NCBI GenBank assembly: GCA_021737275.1
Contig: JAIPEE010000006.1
Location: forward strand, 1 to 64,000
Direction: 5' to 3'
Length of the DNA stretch: 64,000 nucleotides
Source: Desulfobacterales bacterium
Lineage (GTDB): Bacteria; Desulfobacterota; Desulfobacteria; Desulfobacterales; JAIPEE01
Part shown: piece by piece, positions 31,299 to 39,943 of the stretch
How the letters are laid out: each line of letters starts with the position of its first letter
How positions within the stretch are numbered: position 1 is the first letter of the stretch
The notes under the pieces: model-generated
Told to the model about the DNA's origin: nothing
The model's input: only the letters and a program-made list of their open reading frames with translations
The model's database searches: none
Program-made: the position numbers and the translations under genes

Positions 31299-34200
31299 AT
31301 GTCTGAAAAAGCTACCAGAGACAAATTTAAATTTATAATGGCTGTCTGCCTTCACCTGATCTGTGTGTCCTGTATTGTGCTGACTCGAACTTATGTTGAT
31401 TTATTGTTTCTGTCCAACTATCCGGCCTCCTGGCTTCCTTATTTCTTTTTCGGTACAACAGCTGTAATTATGTTGTCTGCGTTCTGTGTCACGCCGCTTG
31501 TCTCTAAAGGCTCAAACAGGGCAAGCTTTGTCATTCTTGTCGGCATGGCTCTGTCGATAGTACTTTCCAGGGTCGTGCTAAACTTTAAGATAACAGGGCT
31601 TCCTTTTGTTATTTCACTCTGGTTAACAGCGGCCTCGGTTCTTATTGGTGTTATTTCATGGAACACGGTGGGTGATGCATTTGACGTTCGCAAGTTTAAA
31701 AATCTGGTAAAGTGGATTAACGGTGCCGGATGTGTCGGCGGCTTGCTGATGGGGTTATGCATTCCGTTTATCATTTCTTTTGCCTCATCCGACATGCTCC
31801 TTTATGTGCTCGGTTCTTTAGTAGCCCTGTCATCATTTTGTGTATTAGCTCTGAAGCCGATTCCGGTTTTGCACAAAAAAATCAAAGAACAGGTTTCCCT
31901 CTTCAAATTTCCTTTGTTCAAATGCCTTTTTGCAAGTGTATTAATCCTGATGGTGGTGGATACATTTGCAGATTATACCTTAAAATCCCAGGTAGGGGCT
32001 GTTTTTTCCAAAGATGAAATCGGAAAATTCATGGGGCCTTTTTATGGTCTGGCCAGTGTATTGAGCCTTGTCGTTCAATTTGGGGGAACAGGCCCTCTTC
32101 TTAAATATTTTGGAGTAGCTTTTTTGTTGGTTGTTCTTCCGTCATTTTCCATCCTGGCCAGTATCGGCATCATTGTCTCCCCCGGGCTTTGGCTGGCGGC
32201 AATTTTCAGAATGGGAGAAAACGTCTTCAAGTACAGTCTCGACAATATCGGATGCGAAATTGTCGCCAACCCTTTACCGGGAAAAATCAGAAGAAAGGGA
32301 AAGATTACCTTAAAAGGAGTTGCTGCTCCGCTTGGCACCTGTATTGGCGCTCTGGTCCTCTGGGGGATAGCCGACCGATTCGGGCTTCGCGGCGTTGCCC
32401 TGGTAACCATTGCGGCCTGTGTGATATGGTTACTAACCATCTTTAAAATTAACAAAGCATATCAGGCAACCTTAAAGGATGCCATAAAATTAAAACGTTT
32501 TGGAACTCAAGGCAGTCAAATCACTGAAGCGGATATACTGGCAGCCGGGAAACTGGCTCTGAGCGCCATTCGGGAAAAAGATCCTGAAACCATCCGGTTC
32601 GGCCTGAAGGTGCTTGAAAATCTTTCTACAAAAAGATTACCTGAAGATGCCTTAATGCTTATAGATTCCGAGAATAAAGATATCAGAGCTGCGGTCGCCA
32701 TGACCGCAGGGCGCGTAAAGGATAAATATGCGGCCTTATCTCTGGTTAAAAGGCTGGATATGGAAACCGACAATGAGGTGTTATGGCGGATTCTGGAAGC
32801 CTTATCCATTATTGAACCGAATCCGGCAATTTTAAAATCAACCGAACTTCTGAAAAGCAGTGTACCCAACATCAGGGCCGGGGCCATACTTGTCCTTCTG
32901 GCCGCCGGAGACCTTGATGCCCTGATAGAAGCCGGAACTGCTTTGAGAGAGATGGTATACAGTCCTGATCCTGACATGAGAGAAGGGGCTGCACGGGCCA
33001 TTGGCACCTTTAAGGCAGGCAAACTGGAGAAAGAGCTAAAGACCCTGCTTGGGGATACCAGTGAGAAAGTCTGCATTGCAGCGATTCGGTCTATCAACTT
33101 ACGAAAAACAATATCTCTGACAGAAGATCTGGTATTAAAACTTGGCTCCGGAAAAGTATCGCATTATGCCAGCCGAACACTTACAGGTTTCGGTCTGCCG
33201 GCAATAGAAAGCCTCGAAAAAGCCGTTCTCCAGGAAAGGCATTCAAGGTCCCGTGCTGCGATCCGGACCCTGGCGCTGATCGAGGATCCCGAAGCTGAAA
33301 AAGTTCTGTCAACTGCTGCCGGGTCAAATTTTACTACTATTAAAACCTTTCTGGCTGAAGAGTCTGCTTTGCGGGCCAGACGCCAGTCAGTCAGCCATGA
33401 ATTTAAAACCCGGGCTCACGATTTTGCCTTGGATGAATTTAAAACCATCCGGATTCTTCTTTCTGTAAAGAACCATCACTCATTATCCGAATATGCCAAA
33501 TCTGAAATCCATGCGAGACAACAAATTCATAAAAAGAACTACCTATGCTGGTTTTCCGTTTGTACAGCGTCTTCCGACGTTCCGGATATTGCAAAAATAC
33601 TCTTGTCAGAAACAACCTCTCCGGCTGAATTGTCCCGACAGGCTACAGCCCTTGAACTTTTAGACACGCTGGCACCAGACAAGGAATTAAAACAAACGAT
33701 CAGTATCTTTGAAAACAAACATCTTTCCTCCGCCCAAAATGCACTCGAAAAATTGGAAAAGCTGGAGGACCCATGGTTAAAGAAAATTATTTTAACCAAA
33801 GATGTTGATTTCAATGGAGGACAAATGGACATTACACAAAAAGTAATTCTTTTGAGAAAAACGACCCTGTTCAGAAATCTGCCCAGTGAGATTCTTTTAA
33901 TCATTGCTGAAGAAGTTATGATTAGGGAAATGGTAATGGATGAAAAAATATTTTCCCAGGGAGATTCCCCGGATGGGTTATACATTGTTGCTACAGGAAC
34001 AGTCATCATTCGAAAAGGCGATGTGGTCATTTCCAAACTGGGAGAAGGCGGATTTTTTGGTGAGATCGGCCTTTTTGACAATTCTCCAAGGATGGCGGAT
34101 GCCATAGCCGAAACCAATGGCAGCTTATTGGTGATTGATAATGAAACGTTCAACAGTATAACTCAGGACCTGCCGGAGATACTCAGGGAAGTGGCCAAAA

Positions 34201-34541
34201 CGGTTATCGGTTATTTAAGGCGGCAACGAAATTCAGTAAGGGTCGATCCGTCTATTAATGAACCGGTCAGTTTGTTGGTGGAACAGGCCAGATATCAAAT
34301 GAAAAATATATCCACAGGGGGGTTCTGTATCCCGTTTAATAAAGAGTTTGAGAGATTAAAAACAGGAAAAAGGTATACATGCTCAATCTCCCTGCCTGAA
34401 CACACCGTTGACACTTTTGTCCGCATACTGGACATTTCAGAAGATGCCTATCATTGTGAGCTGGTTGATCTCAGTAAAAAAGACCGGGATGAAATCCATT
34501 TATACATATTGAATCGACAAAAAGAGGACCTGATGTTATGA
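31299..34541 (+). CDS. Npt1-like transporter fused to HEAT, cyclic-nucleotide-binding and PilZ-like domains
   Basis: 1080 residues. Residues about 10-400 have 11-12 membrane helices of the Npt1/Npt2 (ATP/ADP translocase-like, MFS-related) type. Residues about 410-820 are helical HEAT-type repeats (EDALMLIDSENKDIRAAVAM, DPDMREGAARAIGTFK, SEKVCIAAIRSI). Residues about 850-985 form a cNMP-binding domain: LFRNLPSEILLIIAEEV, GLYIVATGTVIIRKG and FFGEIGLFDNSPRMADAI. The last 95 residues resemble PilZ (YQMKNISTGGFCI, YHCELVDLS) but lack the RxxxR motif in a clear form. It is probably an inner-membrane protein whose cytoplasmic part senses nucleotides. Its 3' end overlaps the convergent gene by 6 bp. 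Confidence 0.8.
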   Translation: MSEKATRDKFKFIMAVCLHLICVSCIVLTRTYVDLLFLSNYPASWLPYFFFGTTAVIMLSAFCVTPLVSKGSNRASFVILVGMALSIVLSRVVLNFKITGLPFVISLWLTAASVLIGVISWNTVGDAFDVRKFKNLVKWINGAGCVGGLLMGLCIPFIISFASSDMLLYVLGSLVALSSFCVLALKPIPVLHKKIKEQVSLFKFPLFKCLFASVLILMVVDTFADYTLKSQVGAVFSKDEIGKFMGPFYGLASVLSLVVQFGGTGPLLKYFGVAFLLVVLPSFSILASIGIIVSPGLWLAAIFRMGENVFKYSLDNIGCEIVANPLPGKIRRKGKITLKGVAAPLGTCIGALVLWGIADRFGLRGVALVTIAACVIWLLTIFKINKAYQATLKDAIKLKRFGTQGSQITEADILAAGKLALSAIREKDPETIRFGLKVLENLSTKRLPEDALMLIDSENKDIRAAVAMTAGRVKDKYAALSLVKRLDMETDNEVLWRILEALSIIEPNPAILKSTELLKSSVPNIRAGAILVLLAAGDLDALIEAGTALREMVYSPDPDMREGAARAIGTFKAGKLEKELKTLLGDTSEKVCIAAIRSINLRKTISLTEDLVLKLGSGKVSHYASRTLTGFGLPAIESLEKAVLQERHSRSRAAIRTLALIEDPEAEKVLSTAAGSNFTTIKTFLAEESALRARRQSVSHEFKTRAHDFALDEFKTIRILLSVKNHHSLSEYAKSEIHARQQIHKKNYLCWFSVCTASSDVPDIAKILLSETTSPAELSRQATALELLDTLAPDKELKQTISIFENKHLSSAQNALEKLEKLEDPWLKKIILTKDVDFNGGQMDITQKVILLRKTTLFRNLPSEILLIIAEEVMIREMVMDEKIFSQGDSPDGLYIVATGTVIIRKGDVVISKLGEGGFFGEIGLFDNSPRMADAIAETNGSLLVIDNETFNSITQDLPEILREVAKTVIGYLRRQRNSVRVDPSINEPVSLLVEQARYQMKNISTGGFCIPFNKEFERLKTGKRYTCSISLPEHTVDTFVRILDISEDAYHCELVDLSKKDRDEIHLYILNRQKEDLML

Positions 34542-35105
34542 TTTTCTCTTCCGTACAACTTTGATAATGATGACAATAATACTCACAAACACATAATAGC
34601 CGAAGAAAAGTATCCCCAAAGATAAGATAGTAAAACGATCCATTACATGGATTTGGCGCCACTCGTTGGCAAGATTACGGATCTCTTCCGGCGCTTTGGT
34701 AAAATCTGTTTTGAGGACCTGGCCTCCTGAAAAATCCAACATGTAACTTTTATCATATTCGTGGCTACCCCATGCAACCAATTCAAGTTCCTGGTCGCTA
34801 TCGGCCTGAACGGCTTTGACAAATCCGCCGCCAAACATGTCTTTATCAATGATAAATTCATCTTTTGAGAGGATTTGTCCGCCATTTTTGAATAGTGTAA
34901 TCTCGTAAGCAGACTGTTCGTCAAAGGAGGTTTGATTCACAAGGATAGTGATTTGCTCATCATCACTTCCCCATACCACTTCATTCGGGTTACTCAATTT
35001 TATTGCAACATTTTTTTTGTCGAAAATATTATTGCCAATTAAATAAACCATTACCAGAATCGGCCATATGAAAATAAAAATTTTGAATGCGCGTTTGATG
35101 GGCAT
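34536..35105 (-). CDS. Two-TM protein with periplasmic domain, unknown
   Basis: 189 residues. An N-terminal helix (FKIFIFIWPILVMVYLIG) and a C-terminal helix (ILSLGILFFGYYVFVSIIVIIIKVV) flank a roughly 130-residue hydrophilic domain (IKLSNPNEVVWGSDDEQITIL, KAVQADSDQELELVAWGSHEYDKS). The ends KRAFK and KVVRKRKS are positive, so both termini are likely cytoplasmic and the domain periplasmic. I recognise no family. It is the last gene of the four-gene operon, with AAGGAGA before its ATG, and overlaps the convergent transporter gene by 6 bp. Confidence 0.75.
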   Translation of the reverse strand: MPIKRAFKIFIFIWPILVMVYLIGNNIFDKKNVAIKLSNPNEVVWGSDDEQITILVNQTSFDEQSAYEITLFKNGGQILSKDEFIIDKDMFGGGFVKAVQADSDQELELVAWGSHEYDKSYMLDFSGGQVLKTDFTKAPEEIRNLANEWRQIHVMDRFTILSLGILFFGYYVFVSIIVIIIKVVRKRKS

Positions 35106-35120
35106 GGTTCTCCTTATTAT

Positions 35121-35348
35121 TTAAATTTTCGTACCACAGCCAGTGCAGAAACAATTGTTTGCATCCAGAGCCACGCCACAGTTTGTGCAGAACCTCGGAC
35201 GGGATGTTGCTGCTTTTGGCGTGGTAATCCGGTCACCAAGGGCGCCGTTACAGGCAAGACAAAGCGTCTGTTTGCCTATGTTTGTACGCCCACATATAGA
35301 GCAGTATTGCTTTAGATTGGTTTCTTTTGTCATTGTCGTTGTATCCAT
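35121..35348 (-). CDS. Small double zinc-ribbon protein
   Basis: 75 residues from the chosen start (MDTTTMTKE). Four Cys pairs make two zinc ribbons: YCSICGRTN with LCLACNGAL, and FCTNCGVALD with FCTGCGTKI. Such ribbons bind zinc and usually mediate protein contacts. The chosen ATG lies 11 nt after the stop of the giant gene; a longer frame to 35375 would overlap it. It shares the ribbon theme with the first gene of the operon, which suggests a common partner. Confidence 0.75.
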   Translation of the reverse strand: MDTTTMTKETNLKQYCSICGRTNIGKQTLCLACNGALGDRITTPKAATSRPRFCTNCGVALDANNCFCTGCGTKI

Positions 35349-35359
35349 TTTTCCGGTCC

Positions 35360-38300
35360 TCATTTGGTTGGCCACGGGGATTTTTGATAGCTCAGTATGA
35401 GTGCCTCTCTTTTTGCCATATCCTCACCTTTGGCGGCGCCACTGCGGAATTTTTCGATACCTTCTTTTTCACCATACTTGTTGATGTAATTATTTAATGC
35501 TCCCTCTTCACCACCGCCGAGGATGTCCGCTTTATCGCCAGACCAGGATCGAACAATGTCCGGCCTTCCTGCTTTTGTCTGTTGCTGAATCCACTCTTCT
35601 TCAGTGTAAACGGTCTGCCTGTCCTGCATGCCCTGCCAATAGTCGATGACGAACCGGTCTCCGTTTGGCGTGATAACACGGGTCGCATTATGGTTTGACG
35701 TGCCCGATTCTGCGGTGATCTGCGTCATAATCGTGCCTTCTCCAAAGGTGTCCTTGCATGCCTTTTCAGACCACTTAATTCCCCACTCACCATATTCTCC
35801 GCACTGTCCGCCGGTCCAGCCCATGGCCCCGTCAACAGGAGAACCAACCCAATTGCCGATGTTATTGATCGCCTTATTGCCGGCCCACAGGGCTTGATCA
35901 ACAACGGGGAGGACATCAAACTCGCGGTTGCGAACATAATACCCTTCCATTTTTTTATCATCAACGGTTTCCTGGATTTTGTCTTTTAGCGTCGCCACCT
36001 GTTCCGGGGTGGTCGGGCCAGGTGGTTTATACGGCTCGGGTTCATCCGGCAGAAGTTCATCATTGTGTCGGTCCACATCCGGCGGACGATCGTCGTCTAT
36101 CTCTTCCTGGACTTCTTGCTGTGTATCCTTAGTCGGCTCTTTTGTCGAATGCACTTTTTCATCTGATTGTTGTGTGTCCTGAACCTGATTTTCTGCTGCA
36201 TCAACTTTTTGAGTATCGGTCCGGTCTTCCTCTGACTGCTGTTCCTTGTTTTGAATTTCCGGTTCTTGCTGTGCCGGTTCGCCACGAGAAATCAGAATGA
36301 CTGAATCAGTCATGTCGCCATTTGCGCCTTCATAACCGGCAATTCCGTGGAGGGACCCCCGATCAGGGTTCTTCTGCCAATCCTGGAAAAGGAGGGTGGG
36401 CTGGCCATTTTCGTACAGATAGCCATTTTTAATCAGCCAGGCTTGCGCTTCCGTACCATCAAGCATTTCTGTCCATCCCTGTGCAGATGAAGGATCCTGT
36501 CCATCATGTTTTTCCTCTCTCTCATGACGGCTTTCCAGTTCTTTCTGAATAGACTGTTCTGCCTTTTCACGGGTCATCCATTCAGTTTTACCATCATACT
36601 CTACGCCGAAAAGTCCTTCATCGTTACTCTCCCACCGCTCACCATTTTCATCGATCAAAAAATTCCTATCCTGTACATCAGGTTGAGAATATAGTTCTTG
36701 TTGCGCCTCGCTCACAGAAGCATCTATGGCTGCAGCAACATCAATGGCTGATATATATGCAGCTGTCATTCCCAATCCACCTAACAGCTGGATAATCGCA
36801 ATTGTAAGACCTGCAGCAACTGCTCCTTCAGAAAAACCGATATTCTGAACGGATTGCTCAATGGTATTCAATACCTGCTCAATAGCTGAGAGCAAATCTT
36901 CATCATTTTGATCCGTCTGAAGCCTGTCCTGGCTGCTTTTTGTTTCTGAAGGTTCACTTCTGGATATCTCATTCTTTGTATCTTCAACGTCAGGCGCCGG
37001 TTCGATTTTATTACTCCCGACTGCCTTATGCTGCTCAAAAAGGATATCGTAGTATGCCGGCAGATAATATTGGGATTCTACAAAGCGTAATTGGTTTGTA
37101 AAAGGCCGTGCATATACACGGACAAGAATTGAATCATTATCCCAGGGAATCGCCTGCCATTGGACGCTCACCGGTTTGCCTTTGAATGCCACAGGATTGA
37201 AGGTTGTCAGAGAAGAATCATGTGAACTTGCTAAAGGAACTCTTTTATTTTGATACGAATAGTTCAGTTCTCCATCGGCAATATATTGGAAAGCGGATGC
37301 GTTGAATGTTATTTTTCCACTTTCGCTTTTCACAGGACTGAATGCTTCACTTGTGGTATTTTTCCATGCCCCATTGTATGTCAGGATATCCCATCGTATT
37401 AAGAATGGGGAGAGTGTCGCTTTTCTCTTGTCCCAATCTACCTTGAGTTCTGCACCTTCACAGACAGCATTTCGCAGGGCAGCACAAATTTTTGCCGCAC
37501 TATTCATATCATTGGGCGAAGGCGCTGCCCTCAAAAAACGCCCTTTGTATACCTTTGTGCCGGTAACATCTCTCTTTGTCCAACTTGAATTTTGCGGTTT
37601 TAGTTCACTTATGAGATGAGGTGTAGCAGGTTCACGGCCGATAGTTTTGACTGGAACAAATGAAAACTCTTTGTCACGGTAATCTGCAGGTCTTAGTTCT
37701 TCAGCGTTAATAGCCTTAAGCGCATTATCCAGTACAATTAAACATCCGAACGCCGTCTCCATTACACCCTGTTCTATTGCAAAATTTTCCCGGAAGTAGT
37801 TTCCTTGTTGAAGTTGCATCAAGAGCGTATTGTTACCCGAAACTTTTCGATTTGACTTGTCTCCAGCAGATTTAGGGAAATTATTAGTTATGTGAAAATC
37901 AGTTTGTCCAATACCATGATATACTGGTTGTTTTAAATACTGTCCGTTGGAGTTAATTTCCCTATCAGAAGTGTATCGGCTTGACATGTAACCATCACCT
38001 ATAATTACCGGGTAACCAAAGCCGTGCATGACAGGGAGCATATTTGAATACCCTCCGTTGCCACTGGTATCAACACCAAGCATATTTAATGAGTTTCCAC
38101 CATCACTTTGTTTTTTTAATGAAAGCTCTACCGAAGATTTGAAATATTTTATCTTTCCAGGGTCATAGTCGTATTGAGCTGCTGTGATACAAGAAAAATA
38201 GATAGGCTCTAAGGTTGCAATTCTTTTATCCCAATCGACAATTAGTCGTCCGCCGGAAAAACTCCAGTTTACCAGCAGATTTTTTTTCCCCGTCGAGATT

Positions 38301-39100
38301 TTACTATTAAACCATCTCTTTTTCCTGGATTCCAGAAGATTTGCAACCCTTGGGTTTAATATTGCTTTATACTCAGTTTGTCCATATCGCACACCTGAGC
38401 CGTTTACAGTTGGCGGTTCACCGTGGAATGTCCCCAGACTACTGGCATTTCCGGAGGAGAATGTAGTCTCTGCTGAAATACCTGTCCCCCATAAAAACAT
38501 AGCAAAAATTATTGTACAAACAGGTATTATGACATTAATAAATTGACCTGTACCCACATTTATTTTTTTTATTGTGTTTGCTTTTTTCACAAGAAATAAT
38601 GATAAAATAACCGCCATTGTCGTGGAAAATCCGTTCAGTAAAAATCCGAATTCTGTTATTTTACGTAGTCCCAGCAGCGTTGAGCCCTGGATAAAGAGGA
38701 GAGAAGCCGCCCAGATCAGAATATAAAAATAGGTGCGCTTGGCGTAGGGCTTGCCATTTTTAATAGAGATCTGATGCCCGCGTGCCATCAGAAAACCGGG
38801 CGCAATACCAAGAATAATTCCGATCAATGGCATCATTGGCCTGTAAACGCCTATGAACCATAACATAAAAAGAAAGCAGCAGAGTGATATCGTTCCGGGA
38901 AGAATAGCGGTAATTTTACCCAGCGGCATTTCATTTTTAGAGCTCTTGATGACCATCCAGCTGGAATAAAGCATCATCAGGATAATACCGAGACTTCTGT
39001 TAAATTGCATGACCAGCATGGACAGCATTAGAATTGCGCCGGTTATCATCAGTTTTTTCGACATTTTGCGGGCAACATTCAAGGCGATTTTAAAAGTCAT
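35360..39100 (-). CDS. 1246-residue membrane-anchored giant protein with putative papain-like C-terminus
   Basis: I do not recognise the whole protein. Residues 1-208 have about seven hydrophobic segments; the last (188-208) ends in GISA-ET like a signal-peptide end. A large polar region follows with two related blocks: LIVDWDKRIATLEP (286-299) and LKVDWDKRKATLSP (552-565). Near 765-815 lies a hydrophobic, Ala/Gly-rich stretch (GAVAAGLTIAIIQLLGGLGM). A charged low-complexity linker (about 930-1030, rich in Q, E, D, P) comes next. The final 150 residues hold GGQCGEYGEW (Cys1100), SNHNATRVI (His1137) and RFVIDYW (Asp1153), the order and spacing of papain or transglutaminase folds. GGAG precedes the ATG. 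Confidence 0.8.
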   Translation of the reverse strand: MTFKIALNVARKMSKKLMITGAILMLSMLVMQFNRSLGIILMMLYSSWMVIKSSKNEMPLGKITAILPGTISLCCFLFMLWFIGVYRPMMPLIGIILGIAPGFLMARGHQISIKNGKPYAKRTYFYILIWAASLLFIQGSTLLGLRKITEFGFLLNGFSTTMAVILSLFLVKKANTIKKINVGTGQFINVIIPVCTIIFAMFLWGTGISAETTFSSGNASSLGTFHGEPPTVNGSGVRYGQTEYKAILNPRVANLLESRKKRWFNSKISTGKKNLLVNWSFSGGRLIVDWDKRIATLEPIYFSCITAAQYDYDPGKIKYFKSSVELSLKKQSDGGNSLNMLGVDTSGNGGYSNMLPVMHGFGYPVIIGDGYMSSRYTSDREINSNGQYLKQPVYHGIGQTDFHITNNFPKSAGDKSNRKVSGNNTLLMQLQQGNYFRENFAIEQGVMETAFGCLIVLDNALKAINAEELRPADYRDKEFSFVPVKTIGREPATPHLISELKPQNSSWTKRDVTGTKVYKGRFLRAAPSPNDMNSAAKICAALRNAVCEGAELKVDWDKRKATLSPFLIRWDILTYNGAWKNTTSEAFSPVKSESGKITFNASAFQYIADGELNYSYQNKRVPLASSHDSSLTTFNPVAFKGKPVSVQWQAIPWDNDSILVRVYARPFTNQLRFVESQYYLPAYYDILFEQHKAVGSNKIEPAPDVEDTKNEISRSEPSETKSSQDRLQTDQNDEDLLSAIEQVLNTIEQSVQNIGFSEGAVAAGLTIAIIQLLGGLGMTAAYISAIDVAAAIDASVSEAQQELYSQPDVQDRNFLIDENGERWESNDEGLFGVEYDGKTEWMTREKAEQSIQKELESRHEREEKHDGQDPSSAQGWTEMLDGTEAQAWLIKNGYLYENGQPTLLFQDWQKNPDRGSLHGIAGYEGANGDMTDSVILISRGEPAQQEPEIQNKEQQSEEDRTDTQKVDAAENQVQDTQQSDEKVHSTKEPTKDTQQEVQEEIDDDRPPDVDRHNDELLPDEPEPYKPPGPTTPEQVATLKDKIQETVDDKKMEGYYVRNREFDVLPVVDQALWAGNKAINNIGNWVGSPVDGAMGWTGGQCGEYGEWGIKWSEKACKDTFGEGTIMTQITAESGTSNHNATRVITPNGDRFVIDYWQGMQDRQTVYTEEEWIQQQTKAGRPDIVRSWSGDKADILGGGEEGALNNYINKYGEKEGIEKFRSGAAKGEDMAKREALILSYQKSPWPTK

Positions 39101-39157
39101 AACACGAGGCTCCCAACTGATGGCGGATTTAGGCCGCTGATTCTTACTTAAGATATT

Positions 39158-39943
39158 CTAAAAAAACATAGCCACTATTACACCGATGAGGCTGCAAGCG
39201 GCCCAGCCGATAGCAAGGGATTTCTTTTCTTTTGTTGTTGCAGAAAAGTCATATTTTTTTTCGAGCAATATAGTGGCAAGGCCGGATACTATGAGCCCTC
39301 CAAAAATCATAGCAAAAATGGGTATGATGATTATGAGAGTGCCGTCATCAATGTATTCTTTAAAAAATATTGTCATAACCCCAAGAATGCTTCCCCACAA
39401 AAGCGCCCAGACCAGAGCTGGAAAAGTGCCCAAAATACCGGGATTGAGTTCTTTTTCGTTCACAACTTTATAAATCAATATCCCGGCAAGAAAACCACTT
39501 AATAAAGATCCGATACCAAAGGATGTCAGCATGCCAGGTAAGGTGGTGTTCCAGGTTCGGGGATACTGGCTGTAGAATTCAGGGTTTCCGGCTCGTATAT
39601 TGTCATAAAATCCGGAAAACAAAACTCCTATAGGAAGCCAGCCTATAAGCCATATTATGGCCCATTGGCAGCCTGAAGCAATTAAATTTTTTAATAAGAA
39701 TGAATCGCTATCCGCGGCGGTTTTAGCAGGTATCGGACGAAAAGGTATCGCTTTTTCAGGCCGAGAAAATTTTTGTTTATTAATTTTTTTTGGTGTAGGG
39801 TTCACCCGGCGGGGCCGGGGTTTGACTTCTTCGCTTTCAGACTCAGGTGGAGCTATAGGAGCGCCACATTTTCCGCAGAATTTTATTCCCTCAGGATTTA
39901 CAGGGGAGCCACACTTGCCGCAAAATTTTGGAGTTAGATTCAT
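39158..39943 (-). CDS. Zinc-ribbon membrane protein
   Basis: 261 residues. N-terminal zinc ribbon FCGKCGSPVNPEG with FCGKCGAPI (residues 8-29), then a Pro/Lys-rich linker, then about five membrane helices (WAIIWLIGWLPIGVLF, LLSGFLAGILIYKV, FPALVWALLWGSILGVMTIFF, LIIIIPIFAMIFGGLIVSGL, GWAACSLIGVIVAMFF). The ribbon should face the cytoplasm. Function unknown. It is the first gene of the four-gene operon, with GGAGA before the ATG and 57 bp before the giant gene. Confidence 0.78.
   Translation of the reverse strand: MNLTPKFCGKCGSPVNPEGIKFCGKCGAPIAPPESESEEVKPRPRRVNPTPKKINKQKFSRPEKAIPFRPIPAKTAADSDSFLLKNLIASGCQWAIIWLIGWLPIGVLFSGFYDNIRAGNPEFYSQYPRTWNTTLPGMLTSFGIGSLLSGFLAGILIYKVVNEKELNPGILGTFPALVWALLWGSILGVMTIFFKEYIDDGTLIIIIPIFAMIFGGLIVSGLATILLEKKYDFSATTKEKKSLAIGWAACSLIGVIVAMFF

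What the first reader, a model, noticed from the sequence alone, without database searches (positions are those of the whole stretch)
34536..39943. Four-gene membrane operon of unknown function around a 1246-residue protein
Genes run in one direction with gaps of 57, 11 and 15 bp: zinc-ribbon membrane protein, giant membrane-anchored protein, small double zinc ribbon, two-TM protein. None matches a system I know. Two members carry paired CxxC ribbons and three carry membrane helices, which suggests one envelope complex. It is the strongest candidate here for an undescribed system. A secretion- or toxin-related role is only a guess.
Basis: partly seen in the sequence, partly recalled or inferred. 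Interest (0 to 1): 0.75.

Follow-up and report, generated by a model that had tools for sequence, protein, structure and literature searches.

The report
Surface thiol-hydrolase operon with zinc-ribbon partners
This four-gene operon encodes a very large membrane protein ending in what looks like a thiol (cysteine) hydrolase, flanked by zinc-ribbon proteins; the same hydrolase, usually beside a zinc-ribbon partner gene, turns up in a few distantly related anaerobic bacteria and methane-making archaea, so it appears to be a rare, undescribed cell-surface module.

Summary
The four ORFs are real, same-strand and at the stated coordinates and gaps. The C-terminus of the giant (residues 1050-1246) is its conserved part: a domain with an evenly spaced Cys-His-Asp triad (C1100, H1137, D1153), unknown to Pfam, NCBIfam, PADLOC and PHROGs, with a transglutaminase/papain-like order of elements in a fair AlphaFold model but no significant structural match. 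Ten copies were found in Desulfobacterales, Syntrophomonas-type Bacillota and Methanomicrobia. Nine of ten are followed directly by a zinc-ribbon gene. In the archaeal class the partner domain occurs in exactly the 3 of about 230 genomes that carry the hydrolase. A Methanoregulaceae locus has the window's order (zinc-ribbon membrane protein, hydrolase, zinc-ribbon protein), and in Syntrophomonas the first two are fused. Most likely the giant displays a thiol hydrolase outside the membrane, after a signal-peptidase-like site, with zinc-ribbon proteins on the cytosolic face. Activity, substrate and side of the membrane are inferred. It is a new variant of a known kind (tethered TGase-like hydrolase), not a demonstrated toxin or secretion system.

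The parts
39158..39943 (-). ZR261: N-terminal zinc ribbon (CxxC at 8 and 23) followed by 5-6 membrane helices; counterpart by position and layout of the Methanoregulaceae 311-aa ZR-TM protein
35360..39100 (-). Giant protein, 1246 aa: membrane module, ectodomain, hydrophobic Gly/Ala-rich segment, acidic linker, C-terminal thiol-hydrolase-like domain
38468..39100 (-). Giant residues 1-211: about 7 membrane helices, N-terminus in; the last is followed by a signal-peptidase-like I-S-A | E site (residues 208-211)
36842..38470 (-). Giant residues 211-753: large soluble, predicted extracytoplasmic region, no relatives found
38204..38254 (-). First copy of an internal motif (GGRLIVDWDKRIATLEP, residues 283-299)
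37406..37456 (-). Second copy (GAELKVDWDKRKATLSP, residues 549-565), 71% identical to the first
36710..36841 (-). Giant residues 754-797: Gly/Ala-rich hydrophobic segment, marginal as a membrane helix (score 0.45 against -0.5 to -2.6 for four of the five N-terminal helices scored, 1.18 for the fifth)
35954..36709 (-). Giant residues 798-1049: strongly acidic linker
35363..35953 (-). Giant residues 1050-1246: conserved C-terminal domain ('CHD'), C-H-D thiol-hydrolase-like, with a C-terminal helical tail ending in ..SPWPTK
35801..35803 (-). Codon of predicted nucleophile C1100 (GGQCGEYGEWG)
35690..35692 (-). Codon of predicted H1137 (NHNAT)
35642..35644 (-). Codon of predicted D1153 (VIDYW)
35121..35348 (-). 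DZR: 75-aa double zinc ribbon in the position of the zinc-ribbon partner gene; lacks the W-rich N-terminal domain of partners elsewhere
34536..35105 (-). P189: two membrane helices around a ~120-aa predicted extracytoplasmic domain; no family match

Best explanation
The operon builds a membrane assembly that displays a thiol (Cys-His-Asp) hydrolase of the transglutaminase/papain-like kind on the outer side of the cytoplasmic membrane. The giant's multi-helix N-terminal part anchors and exports the chain; its last helix acts like an internal signal peptide (I-S-A|E); the ectodomain and acidic linker project the C-terminal hydrolase outward, where it probably cuts or cross-links surface proteins of the cell or of a contacting neighbour. 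The zinc-ribbon proteins (ZR261, DZR) sit on the cytosolic face as assembly or control partners; P189 adds a second ectodomain. SHOWN: operon; conserved triad and spacing; conserved neighbourhood with zinc-ribbon genes; fusion of ZR-TM module and hydrolase in Syntrophomonas. INFERRED: fold class, catalytic activity, extracytoplasmic location. GUESSED: substrate.
For: C-H-D triad spaced 37-38 and 16 residues in 8 of 10 homologues, in a domain shared by Desulfobacterales, Syntrophomonas-type Bacillota and Methanomicrobia. AlphaFold model (pLDDT 77.8, pTM 0.78): Cys at the start of a helix, His at the start of a strand, Asp at the end of the next strand; several papain-like hydrolases appear among the weak PDB hits (viral tegument-type DUBs, Tae2, ComA peptidase, BpJOS, VASH1, USP14), none significant. 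A zinc-ribbon gene lies directly downstream in 9 of 10 loci; partner domain and hydrolase in the same 3 of about 230 archaeal genomes; all 5 partner copies in 63 Bacillota genomes lie beside a hydrolase. The Methanoregulaceae ZR-TM protein aligns nearly full length with the N-terminal module of the fused Syntrophomonas giants (E down to 8e-11). Outside location: signal-peptidase-like site after the last strong helix in the window, L007, L023, L008, L015, L016 and L009; the following hydrophobic segment is not a convincing membrane helix in Syntrophomonas (3.5-4.9) and is followed there by DxDG-type repeats typical of extracellular calcium-binding stretches; L009 has a plain signal peptide and no other membrane segment.
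Against: No significant fold or profile match to any thiol hydrolase. The hydrophobic segment in the window is borderline and could cross the membrane, putting the hydrolase in the cytosol, where the zinc-ribbon partners are. One homologue (L016) has lost the cysteine. The window's DZR lacks the partner's W-rich domain, and none is found elsewhere in its genome. No substrate is indicated.
Confidence: 0.45

Rival explanations
1. Transmembrane receptor with a cytosolic hydrolase: the ectodomain senses something outside, the hydrophobic segment at 754-797 crosses back, and the cytosolic thiol hydrolase acts on a cytosolic target together with the zinc-ribbon partners.
For: The strict linkage of hydrolase and a cytosolic zinc-ribbon partner is easiest if they touch; the segment is borderline membrane-like in the window, L008 and L015 (0.45-0.89); zinc ribbons need a reducing compartment (general knowledge).
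Against: L009 exports the same domain with a plain signal peptide; in Syntrophomonas the segment is not membrane-like and is followed by DxDG repeats; no positive charges follow the segment closely.
Confidence: 0.28
2. Contact-dependent effector: the exported C-terminal hydrolase is a toxin-like tip used against neighbours, and the downstream zinc-ribbon protein is its immunity or holding partner.
For: C-terminal enzyme domain with a gene immediately downstream in 9 of 10 loci; two diverged copies in some genomes; one homologue gave a weak match to the papain-like toxin domain family PF15645 (E 0.06).
Against: No known delivery module; the C-terminus is not variable and the partner is one conserved family rather than a diverse immunity repertoire; L009 has no zinc-ribbon partner; the window's partner lacks the W-rich domain.
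Confidence: 0.13
3. Surface-protein processing or adhesion control of the LapG/BTLCP type: the hydrolase trims or releases adhesins or pili.
For: C-H-D triad as in LapG; DvhG of Desulfovibrio is a membrane-anchored, long-linker C-H-D protease that releases adhesins (PMC13090378); L009 lies inside a Tad pilus gene cluster.
Against: No Pfam match to that family in any of 10 members; the D-C-E calcium motif of LapG/DvhG is Q-C-G-E here; no adhesin or c-di-GMP receptor gene was recognised beside the window operon.
Confidence: 0.12

Closest known systems
Bacterial transglutaminase-like cysteine proteases (LapG, DvhG)
   Same: C-H-D triad; DvhG is also membrane-anchored through a long linker (PMC13090378)
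   Different: No profile match; no D-C-E calcium motif; different neighbours (zinc ribbons instead of adhesin, T1SS and c-di-GMP receptor)
Papain-like / transglutaminase-like thiol hydrolase superfamily
   Same: Order of elements: Cys at start of helix, His at start of strand, Asp at end of next strand in the model
   Different: No significant sequence or structure match; own conserved signature CGExxxxG..NHxAT..VxDYW and a C-terminal three-helix tail
Polymorphic toxin systems
   Same: Large surface-type protein, C-terminal enzyme domain, small gene immediately downstream
   Different: C-terminus conserved and N-terminal part variable; no delivery module; partner is a single conserved zinc-ribbon family
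Zinc-ribbon/membrane proteins with outer domains of Methanomicrobia (DZR-TM-PKD and similar)
   Same: Cytosolic zinc ribbon, membrane helix, outer domain; several sit next to the archaeal hydrolase genes
   Different: Those proteins lack the hydrolase domain

Membership tests
Polymorphic toxin system | Variable C-terminal toxin domain on a conserved N-terminal part | tested here: not met
   C-terminal domain shared by 10 loci in three phyla while N-terminal parts differ; in Syntrophomonas it is about as conserved as the membrane module
Polymorphic toxin system | Recognisable delivery module (RHS, LXG, PAAR, two-partner secretion and the like) | tested here: not met
   No such Pfam or NCBIfam match in the giant nor such a Pfam match in the homologues tested
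Polymorphic toxin system | Cognate immunity gene directly downstream | tested here: inconclusive
   A conserved zinc-ribbon gene is there in 9 of 10 loci, but its function is unknown
LapG/BTLCP (Peptidase C93) | Profile match to the family | tested here: not met
   10 members scanned against Pfam, no such match at E <= 1
LapG/BTLCP (Peptidase C93) | C-H-D catalytic triad | tested here: met
   Conserved with spacing 37-38/16 in 8 of 10; 47/17 in L009; Cys lost in L016
LapG/BTLCP (Peptidase C93) | Acidic calcium motif around the Cys (D-C-E in DvhG, PMC13090378) | tested here: not met
   Window has Q-C-G-E
Papain-like / transglutaminase-like fold | Cys at helix start, His and Asp on neighbouring strands | tested here: met
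   AlphaFold model m9399c6240b49, pLDDT 77.8; model only, from 4 sequences
Papain-like / transglutaminase-like fold | Significant structural match to a solved member | tested here: not met
   Best PDB hit E 0.34, TM about 0.2
Papain-like / transglutaminase-like fold | Thiol-dependent hydrolase or transamidase activity | not testable with these tools
   needs biochemistry
Known anti-phage defence systems | Match to a PADLOC model | tested here: not met

The most novel reading that the evidence does not exclude
A contact module exchanged among members of anaerobic syntrophic communities (Syntrophomonas-type bacteria, Methanomicrobia, Desulfobacterales): a surface-displayed thiol hydrolase with cytosolic zinc-ribbon partners that modifies or recognises the surface of neighbouring cells across the bacteria-archaea divide.
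Probability: 0.08. Interest if true: 0.8.

Novelty: new variant of a known kind. Interest (0 to 1): 0.5.

Why it matters
It defines a previously unlabelled enzyme-like domain with a testable active site and a genetic partner, present in both bacteria and archaea of anaerobic communities. If active, it would be a new tethered surface hydrolase or transamidase and a handle on how such cells modify their surfaces or neighbours. It also gives an annotation to proteins that match no family in the libraries searched.

Tried and rejected
Searches with the whole giant in genome, plasmid, phage and viral collections found nothing beyond its own genome; the Desulfobacterales sample gave only the C-terminal domain of L002/L009, and two Desulfobacterota samples (345 and 287 genomes) gave none. 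Tested and dropped: (1) a tRNA-linked island: no repeat of the tRNA 3' end and native codon use. (2) A W-rich domain inside the giant's linker replacing the partner's domain: profile score no better than shuffles. (3) Descent: the tree of the 10 domains is unresolved, with long branches, so transfer is suggested only by the patchy distribution. (4) A first AlphaFold run with the window sequence on top was poor (58.6); the second, led by L007, was better. Viral-contig scans gave no relatives, so no phage link. The paper searches turned up no description of this gene pair.

Full report
OBSERVATION. The four ORFs exist at the stated places on the minus strand, with gaps of 57, 11 and 15 bp. The 261-aa protein has one zinc ribbon and 5-6 helices, the giant about 7 N-terminal helices plus a marginal hydrophobic stretch at 754-797, the 75-aa protein two zinc ribbons, and the 189-aa protein two helices around an outer domain. 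Codon usage of the giant is native. The flanks are ordinary chromosome: mla genes, aldehyde ferredoxin oxidoreductase, rho, prfA, dxr, an M50 protease and purL by profile, and folC, adk, a CCA-adding-type enzyme and coaE by reading. A tRNA-Arg is just upstream, without an att-like repeat.

LIBRARIES. The giant has no match above cut-off in Pfam, none in NCBIfam, PADLOC or PHROGs, and no significant one in the PDB by sequence. Whole-protein searches of genomes, plasmids, phages and viral contigs found only itself and, in one same-order genome, its C-terminal part.

THE CONSERVED PART. Aligning that C-terminal match and rescanning gave three loci: a Syntrophomonas MAG (L007), a Methanoregulaceae MAG (L008) and a Desulfobacteraceae MAG (L009, same contig as L002). 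A four-sequence profile then found two more Methanomicrobia (L015, L016) among 232 genomes of that class and two Bacillota genomes with two copies each (L021-L024) among 349 of that phylum. No other Desulfobacterota genome in a sample of 287 carries it. The domain shows CGE....G, NHxAT and V(V/I/L)D(Y/F)W motifs; C-H and H-D distances are 37-38 and 16 in 8 of 10; L009 has 47/17 and L016 lacks the Cys. AlphaFold (4 sequences, L007 first) gives pLDDT 77.8 with Cys at a helix start, His at a strand start, Asp at a strand end and a three-helix C-terminal tail. Foldseek finds nothing significant, but several papain-like hydrolases are among the weak hits. I infer a transglutaminase/papain-like thiol hydrolase; this is not demonstrated.

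THE PARTNER GENES. Downstream of the hydrolase gene, same strand and mostly overlapping or within about 20 bp (178 bp in L021), is a zinc-ribbon gene in 9 of 10 loci, the window included. Outside the window it also has a ~90-aa W-rich domain. That domain occurs in exactly the 3 of about 230 archaeal genomes that have the hydrolase, and its 5 copies in 63 genomes of the Syntrophomonas class all lie beside a hydrolase. The window's DZR has the ribbons but not the W-rich domain, and none is found elsewhere in that genome. In L008 the order is ZR-TM (311 aa), hydrolase (771 aa), double-ribbon protein (197 aa), as in the window. The L008 ZR-TM protein aligns over nearly its whole length with the N-terminal ribbon-and-helix module of the Syntrophomonas giants (E 8e-11 to 4e-4): a split in one lineage and a fusion in another, which links the two functionally. 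The window's own ZR261 matches these only in the ribbon, so its equivalence is by position and layout. L015 and L016 carry a further zinc-ribbon-TM protein with an outer domain after the partner, comparable in layout to P189.

TOPOLOGY. After the last strong helix comes a signal-peptidase-like site in every architecture: ISA|E (window), LLA|DD (L007, L023), VHA|A (L008), VVA|DD (L015), AVA|G (L016), VFA|ED (L009). The motif is short, so each single case is weak. The next hydrophobic segment scores 0.45 (window), 0.89, 0.5 and 1.7, but 3.5 and 4.9 in Syntrophomonas, where the strong helices score between about 0 and -2.6 on this rough scale. In Syntrophomonas it is followed by about 380 residues of GYDxxG repeats with many DxDG motifs, which elsewhere bind calcium outside cells (general knowledge). 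L009 is plainly exported. I therefore favour an outside hydrolase, with the cytosolic alternative still open.

POLYMORPHISM TEST. Between Syntrophomonas orthologues the C-terminal domain is 81-87% identical against 90-94% for the membrane part, and between paralogues about 50% against about 60%. One local exception is the tail of L022, 46-51% identical to its orthologues. What varies between phyla is the membrane part and ectodomain.

CONCLUSION. The window operon is one member of a rare, patchily distributed module: a membrane-tethered, probably exported thiol-hydrolase-like domain with zinc-ribbon partner proteins. The closest working analogy is the membrane-anchored protease DvhG (PMC13090378), but the family tests for that group fail. 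Substrate and biological role are unknown; surface-protein processing or neighbour contact are the leading guesses.

Noticed in passing
window 31299-34541 (+): 1080-aa protein combining a multi-helix carrier-like N-terminus (read by eye), HEAT repeats, a cyclic-nucleotide-binding domain and a PilZ domain; its stop overlaps the end of P189 tail to tail.
   Followed up: partly
L008 1537-3192: Methanoregulaceae protein with TIR domain, zinc ribbon, membrane helix and three STIG1-like cysteine-rich repeats, in the same neighbourhood as the hydrolase operon.
   Followed up: no
L007 8798-9934 (protein residues 450-828), also L021-L024: About 75 five-residue GYDxx repeats with many DxDG motifs between membrane part and hydrolase; no Pfam match.
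   Followed up: partly
L009 4062-5177: A secreted version of the hydrolase domain inside a Tad pilus gene cluster (Flp pilins, TadE-like, CpaB/RcpA-like, secretion ATPase), without zinc-ribbon partner (neighbours read by eye).
   Followed up: partly
L016 589-2166: Homologue that keeps His and Asp but has lost the catalytic Cys region, perhaps a pseudo-enzyme.
   Followed up: no
L022 4972-8124: C-terminal tail of this copy is only 46-51% identical to its orthologues while the rest is 78-95% identical, suggesting recombination.
   Followed up: no
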